Source: Desulfurobacterium atlanticum (GTDB lineage: Bacteria; Aquificota; Aquificia; Desulfurobacteriales; Desulfurobacteriaceae). Taken from it: a DNA stretch of 46,880 bases. Positions 23,983-41,409 of this stretch are shown piece after piece. The position numbers and the translations under genes were made by a program. The DNA lies in assembly GCF_900188395.1 (NCBI RefSeq), contig NZ_FZOB01000001.1, positions 262,101-308,980 of the forward strand, read 5' to 3'. Under the pieces are notes generated by a model. That model worked only from the letters and a program-made list of their open reading frames with translations. It was not told the origin of the DNA and searched no databases. Position 1 is the first letter of the stretch. Each line of letters begins with the position of its first letter.

Positions 23983-24169
23983 GATTTACACCTTTGATTA
24001 TGCTTTTAAATTTTCGTAATTTTAAAAATCTGTCCTTATAGATACAATATAAATTATGTCAGAATAAACGTATAAGTTTCGTTTACTTATAAAGAGAAGA
24101 AGTTTTGTTAAAATAACACTAAATAGGGGAATTTTTAAATTTTAGATGAATTTTAATTTGGAGGTAGCT
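23983..24169 (+). promoter_or_regulatory. upstream region of the CRISPR island with an operator-like dyad
   Basis: An AT-rich gap of 187 bp separates the divergent cREC gene and the first gene of the type III island. It contains a perfect 7-bp inverted repeat, TATAAGT at 24071-24077 and ACTTATA at 24085-24091, about 80 bp before the first start codon. This is a candidate operator. No strong consensus promoter can be fixed; TTGATT (near 23994) with TAATTT 17 bases later is a weak candidate. Confidence 0.35.
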
Positions 24170-25027
24170 ATGGAGGCAATTTCCTTAAAAACAGTACTTG
24201 AAAATTATAGGAAAACGAAAGATGAGGTTCTTACAAGTTTGAGAAAAGCTCTTAATGGTGATGGTAATGTTAATAAAGTTGCTGAAACATTTTCCGTTGG
24301 AGATTTATTTTCTTTTGGAAAATTTCTGGGAATGATTGTTGATGAAGGAGAAAATTGTTATTGGTGTTGTAAAGTTTCAGAATTTATAGAAATGGTCGGT
24401 CCTTATGACGTTATTGTTAACATTGGCAGTAAGAGATTTATAGTGGAAACTTCAAATGCTTTTATCGTGCCTAAAAGTTTAATGGGCAAAGCGTTCAAAG
24501 CAGGAACTCTAAGTGAAACTGACTTTGATTTTGTAATCAAAGCTTATGACGGAGAGAAAATTTCTTCTCATAAAACGGGAGAAGAATTTGTCCCTGATGA
24601 TTTAAGGTTTTTATTTCTAAAAGAGGAAGGGGATTTAGTAAGAAAATTTGCTAAACTTGCTGGGAAAACCCTCTTTTCTTCTACAGAAAAACTTCAGACA
24701 AGTGATAAAGAAGAAAACAATTGTATAATTCTTTCCTTCATTCCTGAAGATGTTTTTGAAATAGTTGCTGCTGATACTGAAAATAAGGTGGAGTATGCAG
24801 ATGACTTTGTCCTTTTAAGAGAAGGAGAGGGAATTAAAATTTTTCCGTCTAAAAAATTTGTAGGAAAAAGAGGAATGATTAGAATATTTGGTAAAGAAAA
24901 ATTTTATGAATCTGTGCCCGGGGAGATAATTTTGAAATCTAAGGATGAAAAATTGTCATCTGTTCCCCTTTCTATTTTGGTTGGAAAAATAAAAATAGAA
25001 AGGGAAAGTGATAAAGATGAAGTTTGA
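24170..25027 (+). CDS. MazF-like protein, candidate CalpT-type substrate of the SAVED-Lon protease
   Basis: A protein of 285 residues. The N-terminal two-thirds look like a divergent MazF/PemK-type domain: 'GDLFSFGKFLGMIVDE', 'YWCCKVSEF', 'YDVIVNIGSKRFIVETSN' and 'KAGTLSETDF'. A low-complexity linker near residue 185 ('QTSDKEENN') leads to a separate ~100-residue beta-rich C-terminal domain. Size, order and position directly before a Lon-SAVED gene match CalpT, which the protease CalpL cuts between a large and a small fragment after cA4 sensing. I infer the CalpT assignment; MazF similarity is by eye. The start is the ATG at 24170 (GGAGG five bases upstream), not the in-frame ATG at 24146. 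It is the first gene of the island. Confidence 0.55.
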   Translation: MEAISLKTVLENYRKTKDEVLTSLRKALNGDGNVNKVAETFSVGDLFSFGKFLGMIVDEGENCYWCCKVSEFIEMVGPYDVIVNIGSKRFIVETSNAFIVPKSLMGKAFKAGTLSETDFDFVIKAYDGEKISSHKTGEEFVPDDLRFLFLKEEGDLVRKFAKLAGKTLFSSTEKLQTSDKEENNCIILSFIPEDVFEIVAADTENKVEYADDFVLLREGEGIKIFPSKKFVGKRGMIRIFGKEKFYESVPGEIILKSKDEKLSSVPLSILVGKIKIERESDKDEV

Positions 25028-26537
25028 TGAATATCCTGTTGATATTGTTATTGAATTTGTTAGAGAAGGGAGAACTATTCCTTTTGAGGAGAATGAAGAA
25101 TATATCAGAGAAATCTTTTTAGGTGAATCAGTCACTGATAAACATTTCTTTCTGCAGAATCTTTTGTTGTTTAGACTTTTAGATGAAATACCTATAAGTG
25201 AAATTGAAAAAGTTATGGCTATGGAAATTGTTGATGTTAAACATTTTGAGTTTCCTGCAATTTCTGTTTCAAACAAACAAAACGATTGTGTGTTGAGGGG
25301 GAAGATCGTTTATACCAGTAAACCACCGAAAAGAAACAGTTTTTTAGTTGACAATAATGTGATTCGGGCGTGTAAAACTTTCAAAAGTTTGTTTAATACG
25401 AAAAATTTTATTTTAGTGTTTGATGGTAGAGAATTTACAGGGACGTCATTTATGCTCTCTGTTGTTGTAGCTCACTTCTTTTCTCAAAAGTTATTTGAGT
25501 ATTTTATGTTTACAGGAGAAGTTCTTCCTTCAGGAAAAATAAACAAAGTGGACTCTATTCTGGAGAAAAAGAAACTTGCACAAAGGTATGGAAAAAAACT
25601 TATATCACCTGAAGACGTTTCTTCTATTGAGGAAGTTGATTTCTGGCTTAACGAAAGCAAACCTCTTCCTGTTCCTTTTTCTGTGATGATAAAGAAAAAT
25701 AATGATGGTTTAAAGCTTCTTGAGAGTGCGATAAAAGAAAGGGAGCCTTTGTTTTCTCTAAAAAATTTGGAGGTTTTTTTTGAGATAAAGCGCGAAGATA
25801 TTTCCATACTGCATTCTGGGTTTTTGTCGGAAAATTATCAGGAGTGGCTGGCTTTTGTTCACAGAATAAGGGAGCAACTTAGGAAGCTTTTTTCTAATGA
25901 GAAGCTGGTAGAGCTAAAAAAACCTGTTATAAACTTAATATGTTCAGAATCCATTATAAGTTTTGTAATTGGAGTGCTTGTTGGTACCAAGAAGAGAGTA
26001 GTTTTTCATTCATATAACCGTGGCGATAACGTTTATGTTCCTTCAATGGAAACAGATGATAGTTTAAGAAGTTTGGATTTTCCAGGGGCTGAATTTTGTG
26101 GAGAGTTGATAGATTACGAATATTTTATATCAGATAAAAATAAAAATGTTCTTCCAGTAATTATTGATATGGCACCGACAACGAGAATAGAGTATGATGT
26201 AAAAGAATTTTTAAAGAAAAATAGGATTGAAAATTTCATCGTTATAAAAATAGATAGAGACAAAATTAAGAACTACATTCCTGAAGATACAAATATACGG
26301 AAAAAATTAGTAAAAGAAATTTATAATTTGTTAAATTGCCAGACTTTTAAGAAATTTTCAAAGTTATGGTTTTTTATGAATCTTCCTGTGGATATAGCTT
26401 TCGGACTTGGAAGCACTTTTCAGGATACAAGGATGATTTCACTATTTAAATTTTTTCCAGGAAAGAAAGATAAATATGTAGAGGTTTTAAATGTTTCTCC
26501 TGGACCTTCCCCTGGTGGTGTTAAAAGTATTTTTTAG
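25008..26537 (+). CDS. calpL: Lon protease-SAVED fusion (CalpL-like cyclic-oligoadenylate-activated protease)
   Basis: A protein of 509 residues in three parts. A helical N-terminus (about 1-95) precedes a Lon-like S16 protease domain (about 95-215), which has 'FTGTSFML' with candidate nucleophile Ser147. It also has 'FTGEVLPSGKI', aligning with the Lon 'TGEI…G' strand, and Lys187-189, about 41 residues after the Ser, as the candidate general base. The C-terminal SAVED-type sensor (about 290-505) has 'INLICSESIISFVIGVLVG' and 'LWFFMNLPVDIAFGLGSTF'. This is the CalpL architecture, in which cA4 binding to SAVED oligomerises and activates the protease. It overlaps the MazF-like gene by 20 nt. 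The start may instead be the ATG at 25017. Confidence 0.75.
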   Translation: MIKMKFDEYPVDIVIEFVREGRTIPFEENEEYIREIFLGESVTDKHFFLQNLLLFRLLDEIPISEIEKVMAMEIVDVKHFEFPAISVSNKQNDCVLRGKIVYTSKPPKRNSFLVDNNVIRACKTFKSLFNTKNFILVFDGREFTGTSFMLSVVVAHFFSQKLFEYFMFTGEVLPSGKINKVDSILEKKKLAQRYGKKLISPEDVSSIEEVDFWLNESKPLPVPFSVMIKKNNDGLKLLESAIKEREPLFSLKNLEVFFEIKREDISILHSGFLSENYQEWLAFVHRIREQLRKLFSNEKLVELKKPVINLICSESIISFVIGVLVGTKKRVVFHSYNRGDNVYVPSMETDDSLRSLDFPGAEFCGELIDYEYFISDKNKNVLPVIIDMAPTTRIEYDVKEFLKKNRIENFIVIKIDRDKIKNYIPEDTNIRKKLVKEIYNLLNCQTFKKFSKLWFFMNLPVDIAFGLGSTFQDTRMISLFKFFPGKKDKYVEVLNVSPGPSPGGVKSIF

Positions 26538-26594
26538 TTGTTACTTTTTTAAAAATTTTGTAAAATTGGAAAAATTCGTTTGGGGGGATTGAGT

Positions 26595-28283
26595 GTGGAG
26601 TCTTACCTTCTCAAAGGAGATATCAATGGAATACAAAATTTTATCTATTCTGTAAAAGAAGGAAAGGGAGGTGTTGCAAAAACGTTAAGAGCAAGAAGTT
26701 TCTTTATTACAACAATTCCCTCTTACATAGCATACTTTTTAAAAGAAAAGCAACATCTTGAGGTTGAAGTTTGTCTTGATGGTGGTGGTGGTTTTATATT
26801 CAAAGTTTCGGGAGAAAATGTTGAAAGTGCATTAAAAGAACTTAAACAAAAAGTGGAAGCAGTTTTTATTGAGAAATTTTCTGGAGAGTTAGGAATTACT
26901 ATTGAGTGGTTGCCTTCTGGGAAGGGAAATTTTTCAGACCTTCATGAAGTTACGTTGAAAGCTAAAAAAAGGAAATTTTCCACCTATTTTGAGAGCGTTA
27001 AGAATCCAATTTTCCTTGAAGATAAAGGAAAAGTTAAATGTGAGGTTTGCGATATTTACTTTACAGATTCAGATGATGGTATATGTAAACTTTGTAAAGA
27101 GTTTATGGAAGTCGGGACAAAACTTCCATCAAAAAAATTCTGGAAGATTACAGATAAAAAAGAAGGAAGAGCGTTTTTCTCTATTAAAGAATTTGGATGG
27201 CTTATTTTTCCAAAAAATGGAGGGCATGAAGCATTCCGGAAGGAGAGTTATAGAGACAGTAAATGCAAAAAATACAGCAATGCTCCTAAAAAATTTGAGA
27301 TAGTTGTACCTGTTATTTCAAGAGATTTAACACAAGAGGATATTAAAAAGTATTCCCTATCAGAGGAGCTTGAAAATCTAAAAGAACATCAAATCGCACC
27401 TTTTGAGATAATAGCCTATCACAGTGAAGGAGATAAAAAACTTGGTTATTTGATGATGGATGTTGATAACCTTGGGTTACTTTTCGGTCAGTTGGATGAT
27501 GTTGGCAAACAGCAAAAGCTTAGCTCTATAATAGATATGTTTTTCTCTGAAAAAATTCCGGAGATAGCAAAAGCAGAAAAGTTCGTTCCTGAAAACTCTG
27601 ATCTTCTAAAAGAAACTCTTATCTACCTTCTATATTCAGGAGGAGATGACCTGTTTGCAATAGCACCGTGGAACGTTCTTATAGATTTTGCTGTGTGTGT
27701 GAGAGAGAAATTCAAAAGTTATATATCAGAATCACTTAAAGGGAAGGATTTACTTGGTAATGATACAAAAAAAGATTCTTACGAATTGATAACTGTTTCA
27801 GCAGGAATTTATATAAGTAAACCGAAATTTAATATAAGAGCAGCTGCAGAAAAATGTAAAGATGCAGAGTACAGAGCAAAAACTGTTACCTCTTTCAGCA
27901 AAAAGAAAGAGAAATCATACTCTAAAGATGCTGTTTGTGTGTTTGATGTTGTTGTTCATTGGGATGATATAAATGATTTGTTGTCGGTTTCCAGAGATCT
28001 GATTTCCTACATTGAAAGTGGAAAGTTATCCCGCGGTTTTGTCTATAAGTTACACTCTCTTTATAAGGAAAAGATTGAAAATCCGGTAAATTCTGGAAAA
28101 AGACCTGATTTAAGTTTTTATCCTCTTATCTATTATTTTGTGGGAAGAAATATAGAAGATGATGAAGTTAGAAATTTTGTTACTGAAAAAGTAATTAAAG
28201 AAGCGGAGGATTTTGAAAACATTGAAAATAATAAACTTAAGTTTATAACAAACTATGTGCTTCTTGCTACAAGGAGGTTATAA
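26595..28283 (+). CDS. cas10: Cas10/Csm1, HD-less, with intact cyclase motif
   Basis: Large subunit of the type III-A Csm complex, 562 residues; it synthesises cyclic oligoadenylates when target RNA binds. It begins directly with Palm 1 ('DINGIQNFIY', then 'DGGGGFIFK'). A CxxC…CxxC zinc finger sits near residues 149-170 ('CEVC', 'CKLC'). Palm 2 carries the cyclase motif G349-G350-D351-D352 ('LYSGGDDLFAIAP'), and a helical D4 domain ends the protein. The N-terminal HD nuclease domain of ordinary Csm1 is absent; the upstream 57 bp contain no coding sequence for it. The start is a GTG with GGGGGGA six bases upstream; TTG at 26589 and 26580 are alternatives. Confidence 0.93.
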   Translation: MESYLLKGDINGIQNFIYSVKEGKGGVAKTLRARSFFITTIPSYIAYFLKEKQHLEVEVCLDGGGGFIFKVSGENVESALKELKQKVEAVFIEKFSGELGITIEWLPSGKGNFSDLHEVTLKAKKRKFSTYFESVKNPIFLEDKGKVKCEVCDIYFTDSDDGICKLCKEFMEVGTKLPSKKFWKITDKKEGRAFFSIKEFGWLIFPKNGGHEAFRKESYRDSKCKKYSNAPKKFEIVVPVISRDLTQEDIKKYSLSEELENLKEHQIAPFEIIAYHSEGDKKLGYLMMDVDNLGLLFGQLDDVGKQQKLSSIIDMFFSEKIPEIAKAEKFVPENSDLLKETLIYLLYSGGDDLFAIAPWNVLIDFAVCVREKFKSYISESLKGKDLLGNDTKKDSYELITVSAGIYISKPKFNIRAAAEKCKDAEYRAKTVTSFSKKKEKSYSKDAVCVFDVVVHWDDINDLLSVSRDLISYIESGKLSRGFVYKLHSLYKEKIENPVNSGKRPDLSFYPLIYYFVGRNIEDDEVRNFVTEKVIKEAEDFENIENNKLKFITNYVLLATRRL

Positions 28284-28714
28284 TGAGTAGGAAAAATCAG
28301 CAGTCGGAAAAAAATTTGCTAAAAGAAATTAATCGCAAATTGTCAGCTGTTGAATCTATTTCTGATGTTTTTAAAGAAAGCGACATATATAAACCTGAAG
28401 GTAAGCTTTTTAAAATTCTTGAACAAAACAAAAATGCGTTTAAAACCACTCAACTAAGAAAGATTTTTTCCGAAATAAAAATGATAGAGATGGAAATAGA
28501 AAGGAAAAAAGAGTTAACGCAGGAGGTAAAGAAAAGAATCTTTCGTCTTTACCCAAAACTTGCTTACTCAAAAGCTCGCGACTTAATCAAAGAAGACTTT
28601 TACCAATTCTTTATCCTTTTACTTGAAAAAATGGAGAAAAACAAAGAAGAAGCTTTAAAAGTATGTGATGTTTTTACCTCTATTGTTGCCTTCAAAAAAT
28701 ATTTAGAATCATGA
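28283..28714 (+). CDS. csm2: Csm2: small subunit of the type III-A complex
   Basis: All-helical small subunit that stacks along the crRNA-target duplex, 143 residues. The family pattern is visible as 'FKTTQLRKIFSEIK' and 'LYPKLAYSKARDLI'. The start overlaps the cas10 stop (TAATG), with AAGGAGG upstream. The presence of Csm2 rather than Cmr5 identifies the system as III-A. Confidence 0.9.
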   Translation: MSRKNQQSEKNLLKEINRKLSAVESISDVFKESDIYKPEGKLFKILEQNKNAFKTTQLRKIFSEIKMIEMEIERKKELTQEVKKRIFRLYPKLAYSKARDLIKEDFYQFFILLLEKMEKNKEEALKVCDVFTSIVAFKKYLES

Positions 28715-28736
28715 AACTTTGAAGTGGGAGGATGAA

Positions 28737-29501
28737 ATGGAAGAGCAAAGATATCATTTTTACGGAAATGTGCTAATACCTTTTAGGCTTGAAGTTGTTA
28801 CAGGACTTCATATTGGTGGATCAAAAGAGGGATTTGACATAGGAGGAGTTGACAATCCCGTTATTAAACTGCCGTTTGACGTAAAAGTTAAGTCTGAGTT
28901 TTCAGGTGAAGAATATGTTGTGCCTCGTGAATTTCCTTACATTCCTGGTTCAAGTTTAAAAGGAAAAATAAGGAGTCTTCTTGAATGGGAAAATAATCTC
29001 GTTAGAGAAGACGGTTCTCCGACTGCCGATCCTGATAGTGCGGTAGGAAAAGTTTTTGGAATCGCTGACAGTGATAGAGAAAAAAGGAAAAAAGCAGGAC
29101 CTGTTAGATTAAGAGTTTTTGACTCCTACATTTCTAAAGATAGCATTGAGAACGATTTTTATACAGAGCTTAAATATGAAAACTCCATAAACCGTATAAC
29201 TTCAGAAGCAAATCCGAGGCCTTTTGAGAGAGTTCCTGCTGGAACAGTTTTTGAAGGGAGATTCCTTCTTAAACTTTTCGCAAGGGAAGATGTTGATTTC
29301 TTAAATCTTATTGAAACAGGAATGAAACTGCTGGAAGATGATTACCTTGGAGGTGGAGGTTCTCGGGGATCTGGAAGGGTAAGATTTTCGGATATTAGAA
29401 TTGTATTCAGGGATAAGAAATTCTATAAAGGTGAGTGTAAAGAGAAAATTTTCACAGATTTCAGGAACGCTATTGAAGAAATAAAAAAAACTATAGGGTG
29501 A
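28737..29501 (+). CDS. csm3: Csm3: Cas7-type backbone and target-RNA nuclease
   Basis: Repeated backbone RAMP of the Csm complex, 254 residues. It cuts target RNA at 6-nt intervals. Motifs: 'TGLHIGGSKEGFDIGGVDNPV', interrupted here as 'TGLHIGG' and 'GGVDNPV', with Asp39 the likely catalytic residue; 'YIPGSSLKGKIRSLLEWE'; and the C-terminal glycine-rich loop 'DDYLGGGGSRGSGRVRF'. The ATG at 28737 has GGGAGG upstream, and a TTG at 28719 is less likely. It follows csm2 by 22 bp. Confidence 0.95.
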   Translation: MEEQRYHFYGNVLIPFRLEVVTGLHIGGSKEGFDIGGVDNPVIKLPFDVKVKSEFSGEEYVVPREFPYIPGSSLKGKIRSLLEWENNLVREDGSPTADPDSAVGKVFGIADSDREKRKKAGPVRLRVFDSYISKDSIENDFYTELKYENSINRITSEANPRPFERVPAGTVFEGRFLLKLFAREDVDFLNLIETGMKLLEDDYLGGGGSRGSGRVRFSDIRIVFRDKKFYKGECKEKIFTDFRNAIEEIKKTIG

Positions 29502-29506
29502 TATAG

Positions 29507-30475
29507 ATGGAAAGTGTAAGAATTCTTATTAAACCGACTTCTCCGTTAAAAAGTGAACTTTCTTCTTACACGCTATTTTCAGCTATCTGTTGGGGATTAA
29601 AGTTTCTATATGGAGATGATTATGTTAAAGAGTTAGTAAATATGGTTTCTTCCAGTAAATTTTTTATATCTTCTTTGATGCCTGTAGATATAGAGAAGAA
29701 AAAATTTTTTTACTTTAAACCAGAACTTGAACCTGTAATAGAGAGAGAAACCGATCCTGAAAAACGCAGCGAAAGAAGAACGATGCAGAAAAAATTTAAG
29801 AAAAAGAAATTCATAGATTTTCTTTCTTTAAAGAAAATATTAGATGGAGTGATAAAAACAGAGCTTGAACTTATGAATTTCCTTGTTGATGAAAATGGAA
29901 ACGAAACATTCTATATAAGTTTAGAATTTCCTCATGTAAGTATAGACCGATTTTCAATGACAGCTAAAGAAGGTCTGTTTTTCTATGAAAGTGCGGTTTT
30001 TATAGAATCCGGGTATTTTATTGTTTTTGCTGAAGAGGAAATTTTAAATGCTGTGGAAAAATCTTTAACTCTTTTAAAGGATTGGGGAATAGGCGGAAAC
30101 AGAAATATAGGTTATGGAGCTTTTAATTTTGAAATTTTGAAGGACGAAGAGCTAAATATTCTTTCCGATTACTTTATCCGATATTTTAATGGAGCGACAA
30201 GCTTTATTACTCTTTCTCCTGTAATTCCAACTTCAAATATAGATTTTTCAAAAAGCATGTATTCTCTTTATACATTCAAAGGTGCAGCGGAATACGATTT
30301 TCAAAAAGATGTTTTATGGAAGAGAAAAGTGTTTTATATGAAGGAAGGTGCGGTTATAAAGAGGAAAAAAACAGATGAGACGGCAGGTGCTATATTGGAT
30401 GTTTCTCCTGAACCTTCAGTTTCTATTTTTCAATACGGTCTTGAATTTCCTTTGTGTTTAAGGGGTGAAATATGA
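29507..30475 (+). CDS. csm4: Csm4: Cas5-type RAMP, crRNA 5'-handle binding
   Basis: RAMP protein of 322 residues that caps the 5' end of the crRNA and binds Cas10. It starts with the Csm4-like 'RILIKPTSPLKSELSSYTLFSAICWG' segment, quoted in part here as 'SYTLFSAICWGLKFLYG'. A G-rich loop 'GIGGNRNIGYGAF' sits at about residues 200-212. Position between csm3 and csm5 supports the call. It overlaps csm5 by 4 nt. Confidence 0.92.
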   Translation: MESVRILIKPTSPLKSELSSYTLFSAICWGLKFLYGDDYVKELVNMVSSSKFFISSLMPVDIEKKKFFYFKPELEPVIERETDPEKRSERRTMQKKFKKKKFIDFLSLKKILDGVIKTELELMNFLVDENGNETFYISLEFPHVSIDRFSMTAKEGLFFYESAVFIESGYFIVFAEEEILNAVEKSLTLLKDWGIGGNRNIGYGAFNFEILKDEELNILSDYFIRYFNGATSFITLSPVIPTSNIDFSKSMYSLYTFKGAAEYDFQKDVLWKRKVFYMKEGAVIKRKKTDETAGAILDVSPEPSVSIFQYGLEFPLCLRGEI

Positions 30476-31610
30476 GATTTCGTTTGACAACTCTGACACC
30501 ACTACATATAGGAACCGGACAAAACATATCCCCTTTTGAGTTTATAATTAAGGATGGAAGATGTTATATTTATGATATTACTGATATTGTAGGTATCAAC
30601 TCAATAGTTGATCTGAAATTGAAAAATATGCTTAAAAATTCTGCAACTTCATTGAGTCTAAAAAAGATAATTACTGATTCATCTATTAAAAAGGTTTTAG
30701 ATAGGATAAAGCCCCTGTATTCTATTGCTATTGAAATAGACTTTCAACAAGGTTCTATGAGATCTGGAAATATAAAAAATATTGAAGAGTTTATAAAAAC
30801 CAATAATCTTGTATATATTCCCGGTAGTGAAATAAAAGGCAGTTTAAGAAGAGCCCTTTTTTATTACATTCTGAGCAAAGAAAAGAAAATCGGTGGTTCA
30901 ATATATATCAAATTTATAAAGAAACTTCAAGGTATTGTGCATCAGTATCAAAAGGAAAAGAAAAATTCAGAGGACTTTAGAGCTTTAAAGAGAAAGTTCA
31001 AAAAGAAGTTAAGTAGACTGGTTCAACAGATAGAGTTTGAAGTGTTTCGTGGAGAAAAGTTTACTGAGGACGCAAAGAGAGATGTTTTAAGATTTGTAAA
31101 AATCAGTGATACTGAATCTAAAAGTCCTGAAGAGGTTCTTTCTTTGCGAGAAATTTACATTTATTATTACCACGGTAAGAGAAAACAGTTCTCAATATTT
31201 TCTGAAACTGTGGACCCAAAAGTTTCTTTTTCATTTAACTTGGATATTGATAAAAGAGGAATAAAAAACTGTGGTTGTCACGAAATTTTAAAAGACATTT
31301 TTATTAACGATAAGCTTTTACGTAGTTGGTGTTCTGCTGAAATATGGACTTTAAATAAGGATGAATATTTAAAGTCTCTGTGTCCCCTGTTGTTAAAAAA
31401 ATGTTTAAAATGCCAATAATAAGAATAGGAAAACATGAAGGATTTTTATCAACAACAATCACAGCCTTGGTAAAAGACGACGAAGAACTTTTTGAAGGAA
31501 TTTTTGAAATAGTTGCTCCTAAAATGAGTGAAATTCCAAATAAAACGAGAAAACTTACGGCAGTTGAGAAATTGCCTCTTGGGATATGTAAATTAGGAGA
31601 AGAAAAATAA
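30472..31610 (+). CDS. csm5: Csm5: Cas7-type RAMP, split by a -1 frameshift at an A7 run
   Basis: Terminal backbone RAMP of the Csm complex. The first frame (30472-31419, 315 codons) carries 'TTLTPLHIGTGQNISPF' and 'VYIPGSEIKGSLRRALFY', then stops. The normal C-terminal part continues in the -1 frame to 31610 with 'MPIIRIGKHEGFLSTT', the usual Csm5 glycine-rich segment, and '…PLGICKLGEEK'. The frames meet at A7 (31395-31401), read as A AAA AAA, a classical -1 slippery heptamer. A -1 slip there, or one extra A, gives a normal protein of about 380 residues. Options are programmed frameshifting, transcriptional slippage, a recent mutation or a sequencing error. The second frame ends in TAATG overlapping cas6. 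Confidence 0.85.
31395..31401 (+). other. A7 slippery heptamer inside csm5
   Basis: The incoming frame reads TTA AAA AAA TGT. Slipping back one base gives AAA AAA ATG TTT AAA ATG CCA, which joins the two halves of Csm5 with no missing residues. No Shine-Dalgarno-like stimulator is seen in the preceding 20 bases, so the programmed nature is unproven. Confidence 0.6.
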
Positions 31611-32380
31611 TGCCTGTTAGTTTCAATTTGAGAGTATCTATTAACAGGAAAATTAACATAGAGGAATTAAACCCCGAAAGAATTCATGCTCTTTTCTTCA
31701 GTTTTCTTCCAGAAAGTATGGCTAAAAGCTTGCATGCGGATAATATAAAACCCTTTTCTCTATCATATCAAAGATTTTTTAACAGTAATAAAGAAAGAGA
31801 GATAGGAAGTTTTATACTAAAAATTTCTTTTCTCAAAGAAAAAATGTTTCCACTGTTTGTTAAAGAAGTTTCCAAAGCTGGAAAAGATAAGAATGTTGTC
31901 ATTGGAAAAGCAAAGGTAGTTAAGACAAAAATCAGTTCTGTTAACTATATTTCTTATGCAGAACTTTTAAATAATGCTGGTTATGAAAAGGATATAGTTT
32001 TTCAGGTTATAACTCCTGCAACTTTTAAAAAAGGAAAATATGATAATCCATCTCCGGTTCCATCTCTTATTTTCAAAAGTCTATTTAGAAAATGGAACCA
32101 TTTTTCCAGACTAAAGCTGCCGATTTCAGAAACAGAGTTTATAAAGTTGGTTAAAAGACATGTTTTAACATCTGGCTTATGGATAAAAACGGAAAAAGTT
32201 TTCATATCTCTTTCTTTTAAAAAACTTATAGGCTTTAAAGGTAGGTTATACTTCTATATTGACACTGACAATAAGCAACTTTTAAAAGTTTTAAATGCTT
32301 TATCTGATTTTTCAGAGTTTAGTGGTATCGGCAGGAAAACAACTATGGGTTTTGGTAGAATAAAAAGAATTAATAGTTAG
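31610..32380 (+). CDS. cas6: Cas6: CRISPR repeat endoribonuclease
   Basis: Processes the long CRISPR transcript by cutting each repeat at the 3' base of its hairpin, 256 residues. It has the two ferredoxin-like-fold signatures: 'NPERIHALFFSFLP' with a candidate active-site His26, and the C-terminal glycine-rich loop 'FSGIGRKTTMGFGRIKR'. It starts in the TAATG overlap with csm5. The array repeat has a hairpin ending exactly eight bases from the repeat end, which fits Cas6 processing. Confidence 0.93.
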   Translation: MPVSFNLRVSINRKINIEELNPERIHALFFSFLPESMAKSLHADNIKPFSLSYQRFFNSNKEREIGSFILKISFLKEKMFPLFVKEVSKAGKDKNVVIGKAKVVKTKISSVNYISYAELLNNAGYEKDIVFQVITPATFKKGKYDNPSPVPSLIFKSLFRKWNHFSRLKLPISETEFIKLVKRHVLTSGLWIKTEKVFISLSFKKLIGFKGRLYFYIDTDNKQLLKVLNALSDFSEFSGIGRKTTMGFGRIKRINS

Positions 32381-32405: not shown

Positions 32406-34025
32406 ATGAAAGAGGTAAGATGGGATGACCTGATAGAAAAGGTTAGTAAAGTTGAAAAAATTGTAAATGAAATAAAAACTATAGGTGGAATAAATGTTGA
32501 TTGGATAGAGGAGAAACTTGAAAGAACAAAAAAAGATATTTATGGAAAAGTGTTTAAGATTTCTGTTTTTGGTGGATTTTCAGATGGAAAATCTACAATT
32601 ATTTCGTTTCTGCTAAAACGTAATGACATAGAAATATCACCAGAACCGACTACAGATAAAGTCAACTATTATAAATACAAGAATAAAAATGTAGTTATTG
32701 CAGATACTCCTGGGCTATTTTCTGAAAACTTAATTCATGATGAAGAAACAAAGAGATTTATATCTGAATCTGACCTTATTATCTTTGTAACCGATGCACT
32801 CAATCCTTTGAAAGAGAGCCAGCATAGGGTTATAAAGTGGCTTCTTAAAGATCTGGATAAAAAAGACTCAACAGTCTTTGTCATTAATAAAATAGACACA
32901 ATGGATGTTGACCTGTATAACAGGGAGGACTTTGAGAGAGCTTGCAAAATAAAGAAAAAGGTCGTTTCAGAAACTCTTGATAGAATTATTGGGGAAAATG
33001 CAGGAAACTATCGGATTATCTGTGTTGCTGCTGATCCATGGGGGATGGGAATTAAATACTGGATGGAGAATATTGAGGAGTATTTTTCCATCTCAAATAT
33101 GAAGGTTCTTGAAGAAATTATAGAAGAAACCATTAAATCTCCAGAAACAATGAATATTCTTTTTGAAAAAAAGGTAAATTCGGTTATAAAAGATGTTAAA
33201 AACGTTTTTTCTGTGGAATTGAGGAATAACCTGAAAAGTCTTGAAATCTCCCTTGAAGAGCTTGAAGTGGAGCTGGAAGAGCTTGATAGTGAATTAAGAA
33301 AACTTGAAAAGCATATTACAAAGGCCACAAGGGACTTTAAGGAGCGAATTCGTAATTTGAGAAGTTCTATATTAAGGAGAATAAAGTTATGTAACAATAC
33401 AGAAGAGTTGGGACTGGTTGTCCGCGAAGAGTTGGGCCCTGAAGCAGTAGTTTTAAAAAGTAAAATAGAAGATATTTTCTATGAGTGTTTTACTCCAGTG
33501 ACAGAATATCTTGAAAAGTCAGGGGATATTTTTTTAAAAATTGTTGAGGATTACCAGAAGCTTAAGATGGAATCCTCAATTTTCGCCAGCAAGTTTTTAA
33601 CTTCTGCTACAAAAAAGACAGGAGAAATTTTAGGTAAAATTCCTCCTGATAAATTAAGGGATGGTATTTTACAAACAAGAGACCTTTTAAGAATTCCTTT
33701 TAAATTTAAACCGTGGGGGGCTTTGAAACTTGCAAGATTTCTCAATACATTGGGACCCGTTCTCGGTGCCGTTTCTTTAGGTATGGAGCTTTATAATCAG
33801 TATAAATTAAGAAGGGAAAAAGATAATCTTATAGAAGCAGTGGATTCCCTGTTTTCTGTATTTTTAGGAGATTTTAACTCTCAATATATTAAAGAAAACT
33901 ATTTTTCTGCAGTTGTTGAAATGGAAAATTTAAGGGATGCTATTTATGATGATTGTAAGTTTATGAGAGAAAGGATAGAAAATATGAAAAACTTGATTAC
34001 AAAGGTGGAGGAACTTGGGCTATGA
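32406..34025 (+). CDS. leoA: LeoA-like dynamin-family GTPase
   Basis: Dynamin-like GTPase of 539 residues. G-domain motifs: P-loop G56-GFSDGKS63, the 'FSDGKS/T' form typical of LeoA; switch/G3 'DTPG' at 100-103; and G4 'NKID' at 161-164. Long coiled-coil stalk regions follow (about 250-330), then a hydrophobic patch near residues 430-460 ('ALKLARFLNTLGPVLGAVSLG') that could touch membrane. LeoA-type dynamins form the Eleos phage-defence system with LeoBC. Here the gene directly follows cas6 (25 bp gap, strong AAAGGAGGG site) and overlaps the next GTPase gene by 4 nt, so it belongs to the type III operon. Function in this context is inferred. Confidence 0.72.
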   Translation: MKEVRWDDLIEKVSKVEKIVNEIKTIGGINVDWIEEKLERTKKDIYGKVFKISVFGGFSDGKSTIISFLLKRNDIEISPEPTTDKVNYYKYKNKNVVIADTPGLFSENLIHDEETKRFISESDLIIFVTDALNPLKESQHRVIKWLLKDLDKKDSTVFVINKIDTMDVDLYNREDFERACKIKKKVVSETLDRIIGENAGNYRIICVAADPWGMGIKYWMENIEEYFSISNMKVLEEIIEETIKSPETMNILFEKKVNSVIKDVKNVFSVELRNNLKSLEISLEELEVELEELDSELRKLEKHITKATRDFKERIRNLRSSILRRIKLCNNTEELGLVVREELGPEAVVLKSKIEDIFYECFTPVTEYLEKSGDIFLKIVEDYQKLKMESSIFASKFLTSATKKTGEILGKIPPDKLRDGILQTRDLLRIPFKFKPWGALKLARFLNTLGPVLGAVSLGMELYNQYKLRREKDNLIEAVDSLFSVFLGDFNSQYIKENYFSAVVEMENLRDAIYDDCKFMRERIENMKNLITKVEELGL

Positions 34026-35965
34026 CTGCTCGTGAGTTTATAGAAAATAGTATTCAGGAGTTTGAAAAAATTTTAGAAGATTTTGAAGAGAGAAGTGGGG
34101 TTATTCTTAAACGTGTTGCTTCCAAGACAAAAAGAACAAAAAGAAAATATATTGATAAGGAAGATAAGATTTATAAAAAGATAGAAAAGAGAATAAAAGA
34201 TTTTTATCATAACCTTTCCCTTCTTGGAAAGGAGATGGAGTTTGATACTTTAAACGTAGCTTTTTTTGGAGAAACAAATGTAGGTAAAAGCACTCTTATA
34301 GAAGCCCTAACAAAAGGAGATGGTAGCACTATTGGTGATGGAAGAAAAGATTTTACAAAAACATTTAGAGCAAAAAATTTTGGTAGAAAAATATTTCTGC
34401 TTGATATGCCAGGTATTGAAGGAAATGAAGCTATAGTTTCTGAAGAGATTAAAAGGGCAGCTAAAAAATCTCATATTATCTTTATAGTAATTCCTGAAAA
34501 TAAAGAACCAGAAGAAGGATTTCTTGAAAAAGTTAGAACATATATCGGGGATAGCACATTTGTATTTGGTATTATCAATTTAAGAGGAATTTTTCCTTTA
34601 AATGTTCTCGAGAAGAAAAAAAAGAACATTGAGATCGTAAAAAAACGTACTGAACAAAAATTAAAAGGAGAATTTGGTAAAGCTTTTAAAGAAATATTTA
34701 TTGTTCATGGTTTATACGCTTTTTTTGCTATGAATAGTGGAATTCCTGAAAGCCAGAAATCCTCTTACGAGAGGGTTATGAAATTTGTCAAAAATGATAG
34801 AGAGAAGCTTAAGGAGTTTTCTGGAATAAACAAAGTAATAGAAACCATAGGAACATATAAAACTTTCTCAAACAATGTAATTTTATGGAGTAATATTTAC
34901 AAGCTTTTCAAAAAAGAGAAAGAATTAATCATAAGTGTAAGAGAGGAGAGAACTCAGCTTAAAAAAACTATTGAGGATTTTCTGAAAGAAATAGAAAAAC
35001 TTAAGAGAAAATTTGATTCACAAAGTGAATCTTTACTCAGCGATATAAACTCAGAAGTATTTTTCCGTTTAGACGAATTGAGAGATGAACTTGAGGAGCT
35101 TATATGTAACGCCATAGATGCTGGAAGGGATAAAGATGATTTAAATTCAGAGATAGAGGAAAAAATAGATCTCTGTATAGAGGAAATGGAGGAAAATATA
35201 GAATATTATCTTGACGATTTTATAGAGGATGTAAACAAAGATATTGAAAAATTGATTAAGAAATTAAAATTGAAGTTTAAAAGGATAAACCTGGGAACAG
35301 ATATTGGAATTGATGTAGACTTTACAGAAGCATTTAATAGTCTTTCATTGTCTTTTAAGGAAGCAGCGCTTGGAGCATTAAGTATATTGGAAAGTATCGT
35401 TTCTATTTTAACAGGTCCGATAGGTGCAGTTATTGCTGGTATTTTTGGTTTGTTGAACACCTTCCTATCCTGGCTTTTTGGAGGAAATTCAAAGAAAAAT
35501 GAAGCCAAGAGAAAAGCTATAAATGAAGTAAACAAAACTATCAGAAATATACGAAATAAGCTCAGGAGAAAAGTTAATGGTGAACTTAAAAAACTTAGAA
35601 GAGAGATTAACAAAGTTGAAAGAGAGATATTAAAAATAGAAAAACAGATAGAAAATAAAGTGGAGTATTGGGATATTCTAATTTCCTTACTTGTAGAACA
35701 TTACATATCTTTATCAACGAATTTCTTTAAGACCATTACTCAATCTGTAGAGTTTGCTTACGTTGCTCCTGATTCAGGAAAGAATAAAGAACCTGTAGCT
35801 ATTATTGTTGGAGGAGATATAGAAAAAATAGGATATTTTTGTAATAACATTGGAATTAAAGTCTACTTCAAAGATTCTATTGAAAGCGCACTTAAAACTC
35901 TAAAATCAAAGGATAAAAAATTATACAGCGAGATAAGAAGTTTAGTGGAAAAAGAATGTTTTTGA
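34022..35965 (+). CDS. LeoBC-like dynamin-family GTPase with membrane paddle
   Basis: A second dynamin-like GTPase, 647 residues. The P-loop is G83-ETNVGKST91 and G3 is 'DMPG' at 128-131. The G4 position reads 'IINLRG', so a canonical NKxD is missing and nucleotide specificity may be altered. Long charged coiled coils flank a strong hydrophobic hairpin at about residues 447-487 ('SIVSILTGPIGAVIAGIFG'), which looks like a membrane-inserting paddle. Paired, overlapping dynamin genes of unequal type match the LeoA/LeoBC (Eleos) layout and other two-component bacterial dynamins. It is the last gene before the cas1-cas2 block. Confidence 0.68.
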   Translation: MTAREFIENSIQEFEKILEDFEERSGVILKRVASKTKRTKRKYIDKEDKIYKKIEKRIKDFYHNLSLLGKEMEFDTLNVAFFGETNVGKSTLIEALTKGDGSTIGDGRKDFTKTFRAKNFGRKIFLLDMPGIEGNEAIVSEEIKRAAKKSHIIFIVIPENKEPEEGFLEKVRTYIGDSTFVFGIINLRGIFPLNVLEKKKKNIEIVKKRTEQKLKGEFGKAFKEIFIVHGLYAFFAMNSGIPESQKSSYERVMKFVKNDREKLKEFSGINKVIETIGTYKTFSNNVILWSNIYKLFKKEKELIISVREERTQLKKTIEDFLKEIEKLKRKFDSQSESLLSDINSEVFFRLDELRDELEELICNAIDAGRDKDDLNSEIEEKIDLCIEEMEENIEYYLDDFIEDVNKDIEKLIKKLKLKFKRINLGTDIGIDVDFTEAFNSLSLSFKEAALGALSILESIVSILTGPIGAVIAGIFGLLNTFLSWLFGGNSKKNEAKRKAINEVNKTIRNIRNKLRRKVNGELKKLRREINKVEREILKIEKQIENKVEYWDILISLLVEHYISLSTNFFKTITQSVEFAYVAPDSGKNKEPVAIIVGGDIEKIGYFCNNIGIKVYFKDSIESALKTLKSKDKKLYSEIRSLVEKECF

Positions 35966-36202
35966 TTTAGAGTAATTGATGGCATATATGTTTGTTATTT
36001 TAAAAGATTTTCTTCAGTGTTATTGTTTGTTTTACTGCTTTTTTATAATGTCTTGTAGAATTTTTCGTGGTTTCTTTTAAACCTTCTGGGATTGATGTTG
36101 TATGATATTTCCCAGGAGGTTGCTCCATTTTTTCAGCTTATACAAAATATGTTTAACGTTTGATGGAAATTTTTTATAAAATTATAAGGGAAGGGGGAAG
36201 GT
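35966..36202 (+). promoter_or_regulatory. gap before cas1 with candidate promoter
   Basis: A 237-bp AT-rich non-coding stretch separates the effector operon from the adaptation genes. TTGATG (36160-36165), 17 bases, then TATAAG (36183-36188) is one candidate promoter. TTAACG (36153-36158), 16 bases, then TATAAA (36175-36180) is another that leaves a more reasonable leader before the cas1 ATG. No terminator hairpin is evident. This suggests separate transcription of cas1-cas2-cas2. Confidence 0.4.
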
Positions 36203-37135
36203 ATGAGAAACATTTTTGTTACAACTCATGGTGCATCTTTAACTAAAAGAAAATATGAGCTTATTGTTACTCTGAATTCCAAAAAACACACTATACCTTT
36301 TGGAAGTTTTTCAAACTTGTTTATAGTGGCAAATGTTAAAATTTCCACTCCTCTTATAAAAGCGTTAACTGAAAATAAAAAAAGTGTTTTCATACTTAAA
36401 TCAAATGGCACTTTAACTTCAATGATACTTCCTCCTTTTTTGAATTCATCGGCAAGAAGAAGAGTTGCTCAATATAAAAAGTTTGAAGATGAAAGTATTA
36501 AAATATTTATGATTAAAGAACTTCTAAGAAGAAAGTCTCTTCTTACTCAATGGACGCTTGAGAAATTTTACGATTTTTCAGAAAAACACTATCTTGAAAA
36601 AAACATAATAAAAAGTTTTTACAGGTGCACTAAAGATTGGATAGAAAAATCTTCAAGCATTGCAGCACTCAGGGGGATAGACGGCTACATTATGAACACC
36701 CTTTACGATCATTTCGCTCAATCAATTTCAAAATTCTGGGAATTTGAAAAAAGAAGCTACAATCCACCTAAAAATGAAGTGAATAGTGTGCTTAGTCTTG
36801 TCTACACATACACATATTCCATACTTACTTCTATAATAATTTCTTATAATCTTGATCCTTACTGTGGATTTTTCCACGAAAAACATGGAAAACATGCAGT
36901 TCTCGCTTCTGATTTATTAGAACTACTAAGGCCTGGATTAATTTTTTTTGTAGCTGACATTCTAAACAGTAGATACATTGAAGCTACTGATTTTAAAAAG
37001 ACACGAAAATCTATACTGATAAAGCAACCTGCATTAAAAGTAATTTCTAAGTTATACTCAGAAAAAGTATTAAATGGTTCCTTTTTCTATCCAGTTTCAG
37101 CATTTATTCATGAAATAATGTTAAGAGGATTGTAA
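36203..37135 (+). CDS. cas1: Cas1: CRISPR adaptation integrase with Glu-to-Asp active-site change
   Basis: Spacer integrase, 310 residues. It has the beta-rich N-terminal domain and helical catalytic domain of Cas1. The metal-binding residues normally Glu, His, Asp/Glu are Asp160 ('LRGIDGYIMN' instead of LRGxEG), His225 ('GFFHEKHGKH') and Asp237 ('SDLLELLRP'). The Glu-to-Asp change in the first ligand is conservative but unusual and could lower or change activity. It is not fused to a reverse transcriptase. GGGGGAAGG precedes the ATG, and cas2 follows 17 bp downstream. Confidence 0.93.
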   Translation: MRNIFVTTHGASLTKRKYELIVTLNSKKHTIPFGSFSNLFIVANVKISTPLIKALTENKKSVFILKSNGTLTSMILPPFLNSSARRRVAQYKKFEDESIKIFMIKELLRRKSLLTQWTLEKFYDFSEKHYLEKNIIKSFYRCTKDWIEKSSSIAALRGIDGYIMNTLYDHFAQSISKFWEFEKRSYNPPKNEVNSVLSLVYTYTYSILTSIIISYNLDPYCGFFHEKHGKHAVLASDLLELLRPGLIFFVADILNSRYIEATDFKKTRKSILIKQPALKVISKLYSEKVLNGSFFYPVSAFIHEIMLRGL

Positions 37136-37152
37136 AAAGGAGGAAAGTTGCT

Positions 37153-37413
37153 GTGAAATATCTTGTTGTTTACGACATTTCAGATGATAAAATACGTAAT
37201 AAAGTTTCAACAAGGCTTAAAAAATTCGGTATGCGTGTTCAATATAGTGCTTTTGAAATAGAGATAAAGAAAACTGACTATATCAAGCTCTACAAAGAAA
37301 TAGCTTCGATTATAGATAAAACAGACTCTGTGTTCTTTTTTCCATTATCATCCTATTCAGAAAGCTTAATATTAAAACTTGGACAGGTGAAAAGAGAGGA
37401 AGATGTAATATGA
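37153..37413 (+). CDS. cas2: Cas2 (first of two)
   Basis: Structural partner of Cas1, 86 residues, starting 'MKYLVVYDISDDKIRNKV' with the conserved Asp8 of the first beta strand. The family C-terminal strand is present ('SVFFFPLSSYS'). The GTG start has AGGAGG upstream. It overlaps the second cas2 gene by 4 nt (ATGA). Confidence 0.92.
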   Translation: MKYLVVYDISDDKIRNKVSTRLKKFGMRVQYSAFEIEIKKTDYIKLYKEIASIIDKTDSVFFFPLSSYSESLILKLGQVKREEDVI

Positions 37414-37730
37414 AATATAAATTTTCCAATAGGATAACAACTTACATAATAATTTATGACATTTTATCAGATGATGTTAGAGGGTGGGTTTCTCTGGCAA
37501 ACCGTAGAAGGGCAAAAATTTCCAGAATTCTTTTAGAATACGGTATGAGAACTCAAAAAAGTGTATTTGAACTTGAAATAACTTCCAAAAAAGAGTTTTC
37601 CAGAATGATTAAAAGATTAGAGAAAACTATGAATAAACATGATAAAGTATACATCTATCCAATAGATTCTAAAAATAAAAAGAAGATAAAAAGATTGGGA
37701 TATGAAATTGAAACAGATTTTTTCTTTTAA
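37410..37730 (+). CDS. cas2: Cas2 (second, divergent copy)
   Basis: A second Cas2-fold protein of 106 residues with 'TYIIIYDILSDDVRGWVSL', an Arg-rich insertion 'ANRRRAKISRILLEYGMR', then 'KVYIYPIDSK'. It differs strongly from the upstream copy, so it is not a recent duplication. It resembles the R-rich Cas2 type ('RR.k…l..yG.r.Q.SVFE'). Two translationally coupled cas2 genes suggest a Cas2 heterodimer or two alternative adaptation complexes. Confidence 0.88.
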   Translation: MKYKFSNRITTYIIIYDILSDDVRGWVSLANRRRAKISRILLEYGMRTQKSVFELEITSKKEFSRMIKRLEKTMNKHDKVYIYPIDSKNKKKIKRLGYEIETDFFF

Positions 37731-38063: not shown

Positions 38064-41000
38064 GTTGAAATGCCCTTAGAACCGAAAGGGATTACGACTT
38101 ATTTCCAATTTAATTTTGTTCATCTCACACCTCCTTAAGTTGAAATGCCCTTAGAACCGAAAGGGATTACGACTTGTAAATATACAGCATTTTCATAACA
38201 ACCTCCTCTTGTTGAAATGCCCTTAGAACCGAAAGGGATTACGACTATAATATCACTTATATTTGACGCCTCAATCGAATTATGTTGAAATGCCCTTAGA
38301 ACCGAAAGGGATTACGACTATAATATCACTTATATTTGACGCCTCAATCGAATTATGTTGAAATGCCCTTAGAACCGAAAGGGATTACGACTATAATATC
38401 ACTTATATTTGACGCCTCAATCGAATTATGTTGAAATGCCCTTAGAACCGAAAGGGATTACGACAATATCTAGAAGTTTGTTATAACTAATATATGTTTT
38501 TAGTTGAAATGCCCTTAGAACCGAAAGGGATTACGACATTTAATATTATTTTAGTATCTTTCACTATATCCTTATATCCATGTTGAAATGCCCTTAGAAC
38601 CGAAAGGGATTACGACTGTAATCAATACTTTCTAATTCATATGAACTAACTGTTGAAATGCCCTTAGAACCGAAAGGGATTACGACCCGCCAAATGGCGG
38701 CTGACTCTTCTTTCCAATTTTATTGTTGAAATGCCCTTAGAACCGAAAGGGATTACGACGATAATATTTCTAATGAAGTATCACCAACACGTTTCAATTC
38801 GTTGAAATGCCCTTAGAACCGAAAGGGATTACGACACGCATCCCTGGCCACCCCCTTTCACCGGTGGTGCAAACGACCGTTGAAATGCCCTTAGAACCGA
38901 AAGGGATTACGACCCGGGTTTATTTCCCGGCCTCTCTATCTTTGGAGATCCCCTCATGTTGAAATGCCCTTAGAACCGAAAGGGATTACGACTACAACAT
39001 TTTCATGACTTACCACCTCCTATTTTATTTGTTGAAATGCCCTTAGAACCGAAAGGGATTACGACTTTAGCTAACATATTTATACTTGCATATAATGTTT
39101 TTGATAAATGTTGAAATGCCCTTAGAACCGAAAGGGATTACGACATTAAGTATCTTTGTTTATAGATCTTAAAGTATACTTCGTTGAAATGCCCTTAGAA
39201 CCGAAAGGGATTACGACTAAATAATACCGAACTATCATTACCAACACTCTTTTTAACTGTTGAAATGCCCTTAGAACCGAAAGGGATTACGACCCTCAGA
39301 AGAGGGAGGGGGTTGATGCCCAGGGCATAGCCCTGGTTGAAATGCCCTTAGAACCGAAAGGGATTACGACTCGTATCCACCAGCAACGTACAATTTATTA
39401 TCAAAGGACGTGTTGAAATGCCCTTAGAACCGAAAGGGATTACGACATACTCCGTTTCAGATAACTTTTGAGGGAACTGGACTAATACAAAGTTGAAATG
39501 CCCTTAGAACCGAAAGGGATTACGACCGATAAGGAGCATGAAGAGTTCAAACATATTACCTCCTGTTGAAATGCCCTTAGAACCGAAAGGGATTACGACA
39601 GGTAACTTCTCCGGTAACTGAATCATAATATACCTAGTTGAAATGCCCTTAGAACCGAAAGGGATTACGACTCTCATGTTTACCTCCTAAAAATAATAAT
39701 TTATTTCAGTATAGTTGAAATGCCCTTAGAACCGAAAGGGATTACGACATTATATTCTAATATTGTTTGCATGAGCTTAAAGTGGTTGAAATGCCCTTAG
39801 AACCGAAAGGGATTACGACCAGGGTTCGGGATTCTTGATATGAAATAGATCCTCCTTGCGGAGTTGAAATGCCCTTAGAACCGAAAGGGATTACGACACC
39901 GCCAAATGGCGGTCAACCTTTCTTTCTAGTTTTACTAATGGTTGAAATGCCCTTAGAACCGAAAGGGATTACGACCAAAAATATTTTTTTATTGTATAGA
40001 GGAGGACGGGGATTAGTTGAAATGCCCTTAGAACCGAAAGGGATTACGACACACAACAAAAATAACTACTTCTATAAACATAATATATGTTGAAATGCCC
40101 TTAGAACCGAAAGGGATTACGACATATTTTGAGACTGAATAAATATTCAGAATATAATAACTATGAGTTGAAATGCCCTTAGAACCGAAAGGGATTACGA
40201 CATATTATCATTTACATATAGATCTATAAGTCTATTATAAGTTGAAATGCCCTTAGAACCGAAAGGGATTACGACTTATTGGTGGGTATGTCTATTATCA
40301 TGCCATCTTCTATTTTATGTTGAAATGCCCTTAGAACCGAAAGGGATTACGACATCCGATATCTTCAATTTCTTCAACAGTATACTGTTGAAATGCCCTT
40401 AGAACCGAAAGGGATTACGACTATCCCTCTATTCTTTTATAAAGATACAACATTTTCATGACTTTACGTTGAAATGCCCTTAGAACCGAAAGGGATTACG
40501 ACATATTATCATTTACATATAGATCTATAAGTCTATTATAAGTTGAAATGCCCTTAGAACCGAAAGGGATTACGACAAGATGAATAGATATAATTTCATC
40601 AACGGAATTACCGAGTTGAAATGCCCTTAGAACCGAAAGGGATTACGACAATACTACGACGACCAGAGAGGAGAAAACTCTTCCTCGTTGAAATGCCCTT
40701 AGAACCGAAAGGGATTACGACCCCAGGGCATAACCCTGGGCCACTAGACTTGCTATATCAGTGTTGAAATGCCCTTAGAACCGAAAGGGATTACGACAAA
40801 GTTGCTATATCAGTAAGGACCTCTTGAATGAGGTCCTTAGTTGAAATGCCCTTAGAACCGAAAGGGATTACGACTTGGATGTATCTCATCTACATCTATA
40901 ATAAATGGGATATTTTTTAAGTTGAAATGCCCTTAGAACCGAAAGGGATTACGACAATCCAAAATCAGTTAATTTATTTAGAAGAGATATATTAAGTTGA

Positions 41001-41409
41001 AATGCCCTTAGAACCGAAAGGGATTACGACATTTAGCATACTTTGGAAATATATCCATAGATAATCTAAATTTAAATGTTGAAATGCCCTTAGAACCGAA
41101 AGGGATTACGACAGTATGTATTCTCCCATTTTCTTATAAATATACAACATTTTGTTGAAATGCCCTTAGAACCGAAAGGGATTACGACTATCCTTATATC
41201 CATATAACATATCCTTTAAAAAGTTGAAATGCCCTTAGAACCGAAAGGGATTACGACGCTTCAGGTGCGTGTATTCGTGAAGCAGCACTTTTATGGAGTG
41301 TTGAAATGCCCTTAGAGCCGAAAGGGATTACGACCAGGGTGGCGGGTTACCACGATATCTGCCTTTGACACCGTGTTGAAACGCCCTTAGAACTGAAAGG
41401 GATTACGGC
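38064..41409 (+). CRISPR. type III-A CRISPR array, 45 repeats and 44 spacers
   Basis: The repeat is 35 bp, beginning GTTGAAATGC and ending GGGATTACGAC. I counted 45 copies, with spacers of 33-47 bp (average about 40). The repeat holds a CCCTT/AAGGG hairpin ending eight bases before the repeat end, so Cas6 cutting would leave the 5' handle ATTACGAC in crRNAs from the + strand. The last two copies are degenerate (41300: one change, AGAACC to AGAGCC; 41375: three changes), as expected at the leader-distal end. Spacers 3, 4 and 5 are identical (38246-38429), and spacers 29 and 33 are identical (40202-40240, 40503-40541). Transcription on + is also supported by spacers antisense to ribosome-binding sites. 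Confidence 0.97.

What the first reader, a model, noticed from the sequence alone, without database searches (positions are those of the whole stretch)
32406..35965. Eleos-like dynamin pair embedded in a type III-A CRISPR operon
Two overlapping dynamin-family GTPases, one with the LeoA-type 'FSDGKS' P-loop and one with a strong hydrophobic paddle, lie 25 bp after cas6 on the same strand. They precede the adaptation genes. LeoA/LeoBC dynamins are known as a stand-alone defence system. I do not know of a described role as type III ancillary proteins. They could remodel or disrupt membrane when the Csm complex senses viral RNA, perhaps through cyclic oligoadenylate or through the protease.
Basis: partly seen in the sequence, partly recalled or inferred. 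Interest (0 to 1): 0.88.

Follow-up and report, generated by a model that had tools for sequence, protein, structure and literature searches.

The report
Dynamin pair inside type III-A CRISPR
A heat-loving Aquificota bacterium carries two membrane-shaping dynamin genes, of a kind known as a free-standing phage defence, inside its RNA-sensing CRISPR gene cluster, and an unrelated bacterium has done the same independently, so such dynamins may be an undescribed helper of type III CRISPR immunity; how they would be switched on is not shown.

Summary
LeoA1 (32406-34025) and a LeoBC-like partner (34022-35965) start 25 bp after cas6 and lie before cas1-cas2-cas2' in a III-A locus: CalpT-CalpL-Cas10(HD-less, GGDD)-Csm2-5-Cas6-[Leo pair]-Cas1-Cas2-Cas2'-array. 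Both are full-length dynamin-like GTPases of the Eleos/LeoABC kind.

Leo pairs are rare and mostly not beside CRISPR. Of 21 loci found (20 with readable flanks), 3 are CRISPR-linked and they do not form one clade. In a WOR-3 genome the pair heads a III-B operon and its stop codon overlaps a CARF-nuclease gene. In a Hydrogenothermaceae genome it sits with Cas6, Csx1 and an array. In this genome's second III-A locus cas6 is followed directly by cas1. In two congeners the place after cas6 holds Csx1, a known cOA effector.

Best reading: an Eleos pair recruited as co-expressed cargo into a variable effector slot. Direct cOA sensing is unsupported (no CARF or SAVED domain; architecture matches stand-alone relatives). 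Gating through the CalpL/CalpT protease branch, whose usual sigma factor was not found, is possible but unproven. No held paper joins dynamins to type III CRISPR. New variant of a known kind; interest moderate to high.

The parts
24146..25027 (+). CalpT-like protein (293 aa); C-terminal residues 211-247 resemble CalpT10
   Evidence: PADLOC CRISPR-T E 3e-5; weak match to 8b0u CalpT10, E 0.36; aligns over its length to a CalpT-position protein in G120
25008..26537 (+). CalpL-like Lon-SAVED protease (509 aa); Ser147/Lys187 at the positions of S152/K193 of 7qda by alignment
   Evidence: PADLOC SAVED4 SAVED_LON E 1e-147; 7qda/8b0u CalpL E 3e-26
26580..28283 (+). Cas10/Csm1, 567 aa, without the HD region, cyclase GGDD at 354
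   Evidence: TIGR02578 304 bits, match starts at profile position 230
28283..28714 (+). Csm2
28719..29501 (+). Csm3
29507..30475 (+). Csm4
30472..31610 (+). Csm5; ORF ends at 31419, but the conserved C-terminus continues in the -1 frame after an A7 tract near 31391 and runs up to the cas6 start
31610..32380 (+). Cas6
32406..34025 (+). LeoA1: LeoA-type dynamin-like GTPase, 539 aa
34022..35965 (+). LeoA2: LeoBC-type dynamin-like GTPase, 647 aa, with hydrophobic paddle
35966..36202 (.). 237-bp intergenic gap between the Leo pair and cas1; no listed ORF, no listed terminator
36203..37135 (+). Cas1
37153..37413 (+). Cas2
37410..37730 (+). second Cas2
38064..41409 (+). CRISPR array, 45 repeats of 35 nt, last two degenerate

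Best explanation
The two genes are an Eleos/LeoABC-type dynamin pair recruited as an accessory effector cassette into a variable slot after cas6 of a type III-A operon, and probably translated from the operon's transcript. The two GTPases most likely work together on the inner membrane as a heterotypic dynamin-like pair; the LeoBC-type partner carries the stronger paddle. They would give an abortive or membrane-guarding layer of defence beside the Csm complex, which here has an HD-less Cas10 and so must act through target-RNA cleavage and cyclic oligoadenylate. Shown: gene identity, order, orientation, family, recurrence beside type III genes elsewhere, and use of the same slot by Csx1 in congeners. 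Inferred: co-transcription, heterotypic membrane action, antiphage role. Not shown: any switch from Csm to the dynamins. If one exists, the only candidate visible in the locus is the cA4-CalpL-CalpT branch.
For: Same strand, 25-bp gap with a strong RBS after cas6, 4-bp overlap between the pair. No + strand terminator-like site listed between the end of LeoA2 and cas1. The remaining window genes that were checked are housekeeping (gatC/gatA and pdxJ side, PPK2, tsaD, selA), so this is not a general defence island. The second III-A locus of the same genome has cas6 then cas1 with an 8-bp gap; its orthologues in two congeners have a Csx1-type gene directly after cas6. Recurrence: WOR-3 III-B operon LeoBC-LeoA-CARF/PDDEXK-Cas4-like-Cas10-Cmr3-Cmr4, with an 8-nt stop/start overlap between LeoA and the CARF nuclease. 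Hydrogenothermaceae: pair with Cas6, Csx1, an array, and a solitary repeat upstream. The tree needs three changes for the CRISPR-linked label, and the pair order differs between window and WOR-3. Base composition of the Leo genes (30-33% GC) matches the cas genes.
Against: Most Leo pairs are not beside CRISPR. The nearest Cas10 relatives in the family (G018, G001) lack the pair. Crude chance estimate with the window included: P 0.03 for two Cas10-linked loci, 0.003 for three CRISPR-linked loci. The window was chosen because of the adjacency; leaving it out, one further Cas10-linked locus in 20 is not rare (about 0.2, from the same rate). The 237-bp gap after the pair could hold a promoter for cas1. 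No transcript data.
Confidence: 0.5

Rival explanations
1. Passive neighbour: an autonomous Eleos module landed between cas6 and cas1, is expressed by itself and senses phage by itself; the CRISPR locus is only a landing site.
For: Most relatives are stand-alone. The pair is the same length and architecture as stand-alone pairs, without extra domains. 237-bp gap to cas1. Rare in the phylum: 5 of 136 genomes.
Against: Operon spacing with the pair inside the operon and not at its edge. Coupled overlap with a CARF effector gene in the WOR-3 III-B operon. Slot shared with Csx1 in congeners.
Confidence: 0.3
2. Protease-gated effector: cA4 made by Cas10 activates CalpL, which cleaves CalpT (or a Leo protein) and so frees the dynamins; here they replace the sigma factor CalpS as the Calp output.
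For: CalpL with its dyad residues at the catalytic positions and a CalpT-like protein in the same operon. HD-less Cas10 with GGDD. No sigma gene beside CalpT; the genome has only three sigma-70 genes, each with a counterpart in both congeners. The Leo pair is the only other non-cas cargo in the locus.
Against: No direct evidence. The WOR-3 and Hydrogenothermaceae cases show no CalpL beside the pair. CalpT/CalpL pairs in G000 (second locus), G001 and G002 occur beside unknown genes and without Leo. A diverged sigma factor could escape the Pfam model. The window CalpT is weakly matched to the solved CalpT10 (E 0.36).
Confidence: 0.15
3. The dynamins bind cyclic oligoadenylate directly.
For: Position in an effector slot of a cOA-only system.
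Against: No CARF or SAVED hit by family or fold search. The small C-terminal alpha/beta region of LeoA2 is shared by stand-alone LeoBC proteins.
Confidence: 0.05

Closest known systems
LeoABC / Eleos dynamin-like pair (LeoA structure 4AUR; PMC4159319; PADLOC LeoA/LeoBC)
   Same: Two adjacent dynamin-like GTPases, LeoA plus LeoBC; LeoA profile matches 4AUR over its whole length; paddle in LeoBC
   Different: LeoBC is one chain here; ETEC LeoB and LeoC are split. Order is LeoA then LeoBC here and in Aquificota, reversed elsewhere. Lies inside a CRISPR operon.
Campylobacter jejuni Cj-DLP1/2 pair (5OWV/5OXF; PMC6104087)
   Same: Paired bacterial dynamins; 5oxf_C gives a TM score of 0.42 with the LeoA2 model, well above the other dynamins listed (0.2-0.3)
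   Different: About 13% identity; the assembly domain of Cj-DLP1 is said to be specific to Campylobacter; not CRISPR-linked as far as that paper says
Calp system (CalpL/CalpT/CalpS; PMC11417357)
   Same: Lon-SAVED protease and CalpT-like protein head the operon of a type III system
   Different: No CalpS found; the operon carries a dynamin pair
Type III ancillary effectors in the post-cas6 slot (Csx1)
   Same: Same place after cas6 in congeners
   Different: Csx1 has a CARF sensor; the Leo proteins have none detected

Membership tests
Eleos / LeoABC dynamin pair | LeoA-type GTPase full length with the FSDGKS P-loop | tested here: met
   NF041922 370 bits over cut-off 325; 4AUR E 2e-102; motif
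Eleos / LeoABC dynamin pair | Adjacent LeoBC partner with paddle | tested here: met
   PADLOC LeoBC 6e-76, LeoB 1.5e-52; alignment; hydropathy
Eleos / LeoABC dynamin pair | Dynamin fold | tested here: met
   LeoA1: 4AUR rank 1, E 2e-19. LeoA2: BDLP, IniA, Cj-DLP, LeoA among the best; models of medium confidence, pLDDT 78 and 74
Eleos / LeoABC dynamin pair | Anti-phage activity | not testable with these tools
   needs bench work
Type III-A CRISPR-Cas | Cas10/Csm1 with Csm2-Csm5, Cas6, Cas1, Cas2 and array | tested here: met
   Csm5 frameshifted in this assembly
Type III-A CRISPR-Cas | cOA synthesis capacity (GGDD) | tested here: met
   GGDD at residue 354; activity itself not testable
Calp system | CalpL Lon-SAVED protease | tested here: met
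Calp system | CalpT substrate | tested here: inconclusive
   PADLOC CRISPR-T 3e-5, CalpT10 E 0.36, position
Calp system | CalpS ECF sigma factor encoded with CalpT/L | tested here: not met
   none in the locus; three sigma-70 genes in the genome, each with a counterpart in two congeners
cOA-activated ancillary effector | CARF or SAVED sensor domain in the effector | tested here: not met
Type III ancillary protein (by genomic association) | Recurrent presence in type III operons | tested here: inconclusive
   3 of 20 readable Leo loci CRISPR-linked, 2 with Cas10

The most novel reading that the evidence does not exclude
A type III CRISPR system whose output is membrane remodelling by a dynamin pair, switched on when cA4-activated CalpL cuts CalpT: the dynamins take the place of the CalpS sigma factor as the released effector.
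Probability: 0.15. Interest if true: 0.88.

Novelty: new variant of a known kind. Interest (0 to 1): 0.6.

Why it matters
Known type III outputs include nucleases, proteases with a transcription response, translation shut-off and membrane proteins. A dynamin pair recruited at least twice to type III operons in unrelated phyla would tie a eukaryote-like membrane-remodelling machine to RNA-guided immunity. It would also make testable what switches bacterial defence dynamins on, and what the Calp protease releases when no sigma factor is encoded with it.

Tried and rejected
Sensor domain in the dynamins: none by Pfam, NCBIfam, PADLOC or fold search. Leo pair as a core part of the window-type III-A system: rejected, since the nearest Cas10 relatives lack it. 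Finding CalpS: sigma-70 search found only three genes shared with congeners. Promoter scan uninformative: 49 promoter-like sites against 53 expected. Leo relatives in viral contigs: none; plasmids: two distant LeoA hits, context not examined. Whole-genome surveys of four further groups gave few Leo loci. Spacer seeds against viral contigs: no hit. The 237-bp gap has no match in the other fetched loci.

Full report
Observation. The window lies on a 309-kb contig of a 1.74-Mb, 99.7% complete genome of the phylum Aquificota; named relatives in the same class are Aquificaceae and Persephonella. I infer from kinship groups and genome sizes that it belongs to Desulfurobacteriaceae, but no record names it. 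All genes are on the + strand: CalpT-like, CalpL-like, Cas10, Csm2, Csm3, Csm4, Csm5, Cas6, LeoA1, LeoA2, Cas1, Cas2, Cas2', then a 45-repeat array. LeoA1 starts 25 bp after cas6 behind AGGAGGG; LeoA1 and LeoA2 overlap by ATGA; 237 bp separate LeoA2 from cas1. The flanking window genes that were checked are housekeeping genes, so the locus is an isolated CRISPR locus and not a broad defence island.

What the two proteins are. LeoA1 passes the NCBIfam LeoA/HP0731 cut-off, and its family profile matches LeoA 4AUR over its full length. LeoA2 is the LeoBC-type partner and has the stronger hydrophobic paddle. AlphaFold models of medium confidence (pLDDT 78 and 74) retrieve LeoA, BDLP, IniA and the Cj-DLP pair. 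Lengths and domains equal those of stand-alone homologues, so no sensor domain has been added. The paddle of LeoA2 and the reported need for pairing in LeoABC and Cj-DLP1/2 (PMC4159319, PMC6104087) make heterotypic membrane action the natural inference.

What the CRISPR part can do. Cas10 lacks the HD region and keeps GGDD, so it should signal by cyclic oligoadenylate. The receiver in the locus is a Lon-SAVED protease with the two dyad residues in place and a CalpT-like protein. In Sulfurihydrogenibium, CalpL cleaves CalpT to release CalpS (PMC11417357). Here no sigma gene lies near; the genome holds three sigma-70 genes, each with a counterpart in both congeners examined. The output of this Calp branch is therefore open. 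The Leo pair is the only other cargo in the locus, but nothing links them directly.

Empty and occupied slots. The same genome has a second III-A locus with its own CalpL, an 830-aa Cas10, csm2-5 and cas6; there cas1 follows cas6 after 8 bp. Orthologues of that locus in two congeners have a Csx1-type gene immediately after cas6 (the family scan was run on the G001 copy only). The nearest relatives of the window Cas10, in G018 and G001, have no Leo pair. So the place after cas6 is variable in this genus: empty, Csx1, or the Leo pair.

Recurrence. LeoA at E <= 1e-25 was found in 5 of 136 Aquificota genomes, 2 of 147 WOR-3, 1 of 395 Thermodesulfobacteriota, 2 of 391 of the Ignavibacteria class and 3 of 64 Latescibacterota. 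A pattern scan of 84,980 species gave 17 loci. In all there are 21 distinct loci, of which 20 have readable flanks. Three are CRISPR-linked: the window; a WOR-3 III-B operon in which LeoBC-LeoA precedes a CARF-PDDEXK gene with the 8-nt overlap ATGGATAA, then a Cas4-like gene, Cas10, Cmr3 and Cmr4; and a Hydrogenothermaceae locus with Cas6, Csx1, an array and a solitary inverted repeat upstream of LeoA. The other loci were checked with single-sequence cas queries, an array finder and a Cas10 profile search of the genomes, so a very diverged cas gene could have been missed. A maximum-likelihood tree needs three label changes, no bootstrap tree groups the three, and gene order differs. Independent association is therefore likelier than one origin, though one gain with losses is not excluded. 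Statistics are weak: with about 0.28 chance co-localisations expected, P is 0.03 for two Cas10-linked loci and 0.003 for three CRISPR-linked loci. The Cas10 count of one genome was assumed, the window was chosen for its adjacency, and defence genes cluster in general. Without the window, one further Cas10-linked locus would not be rare (about 0.2). The translational overlap in WOR-3 is stronger evidence than the counts.

Literature. No paper in the held library contains both 'type III CRISPR' and 'dynamin', and the 2024 survey of type III effectors has no mention of dynamin or GTPase in its main text. Eleos is described as a dynamin-like defence system (PMC11811056). The library lacks most subscription papers, so novelty is provisional.

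Verdict. Real, well placed, recurrent in at least one other type III operon, and not explained by a known ancillary family. I file the proteins as members of the LeoABC/Eleos pair family in a new context. I do not file them as cOA effectors (no sensor domain) nor the locus as a complete Calp system (no CalpS). The mechanism by which Csm would switch the dynamins on, if it does, is not shown.

Noticed in passing
window 38064-41409 and L041:12485-14261: Spacers are enriched in sequences antisense to translation starts (Shine-Dalgarno plus ATG on the reverse complement): 5 of 41 and 4 of 21 unique spacers, against shuffle means of 0.5 and 0.3 and about 1% of random 40-mers; sense orientation 1 and 0. 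Arrays of six loci in other Aquificota show 1 in 60. May reflect acquisition or selection for mRNA 5' ends.
   Followed up: partly
window 31380-31610: csm5 ends early at 31419; its conserved C-terminus continues in the -1 frame after an A7 tract and runs to the cas6 start codon. Sequencing error, real frameshift or slippage.
   Followed up: partly
L041:786-1854, L099:5729-6764, L106:5142-6189: Two genes of unknown family (about 150 and 200 aa) precede calpT in three congeneric III-A loci, in the place where a Calp partner would be expected; no sigma domain detected in those scanned.
   Followed up: partly
L043:13573-14364 and L068:6982-7518: A DUF445 protein gene directly adjoins the Leo pair in two different phyla; possible third component.
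   Followed up: no
L038:7282-9249: LeoBC of G024 is broken into three frames while LeoA is intact; L107 LeoBC is also split.
   Followed up: no
window 36203-37730 and L041:10781-12364: Cas6, Cas1 and both Cas2 are much closer between the two III-A loci of this genome than are Cas10 and Csm proteins, and the repeats are alike: likely exchange of adaptation and cas6 modules.
   Followed up: partly
window 38246-38429 and 40202-40541: One spacer occurs three times in a row and another twice.
   Followed up: no
L037:8740-8758: A solitary CRISPR repeat copy in inverted orientation lies 220 bp upstream of LeoA in G025, about 6 kb from the array of the same repeat.
   Followed up: partly
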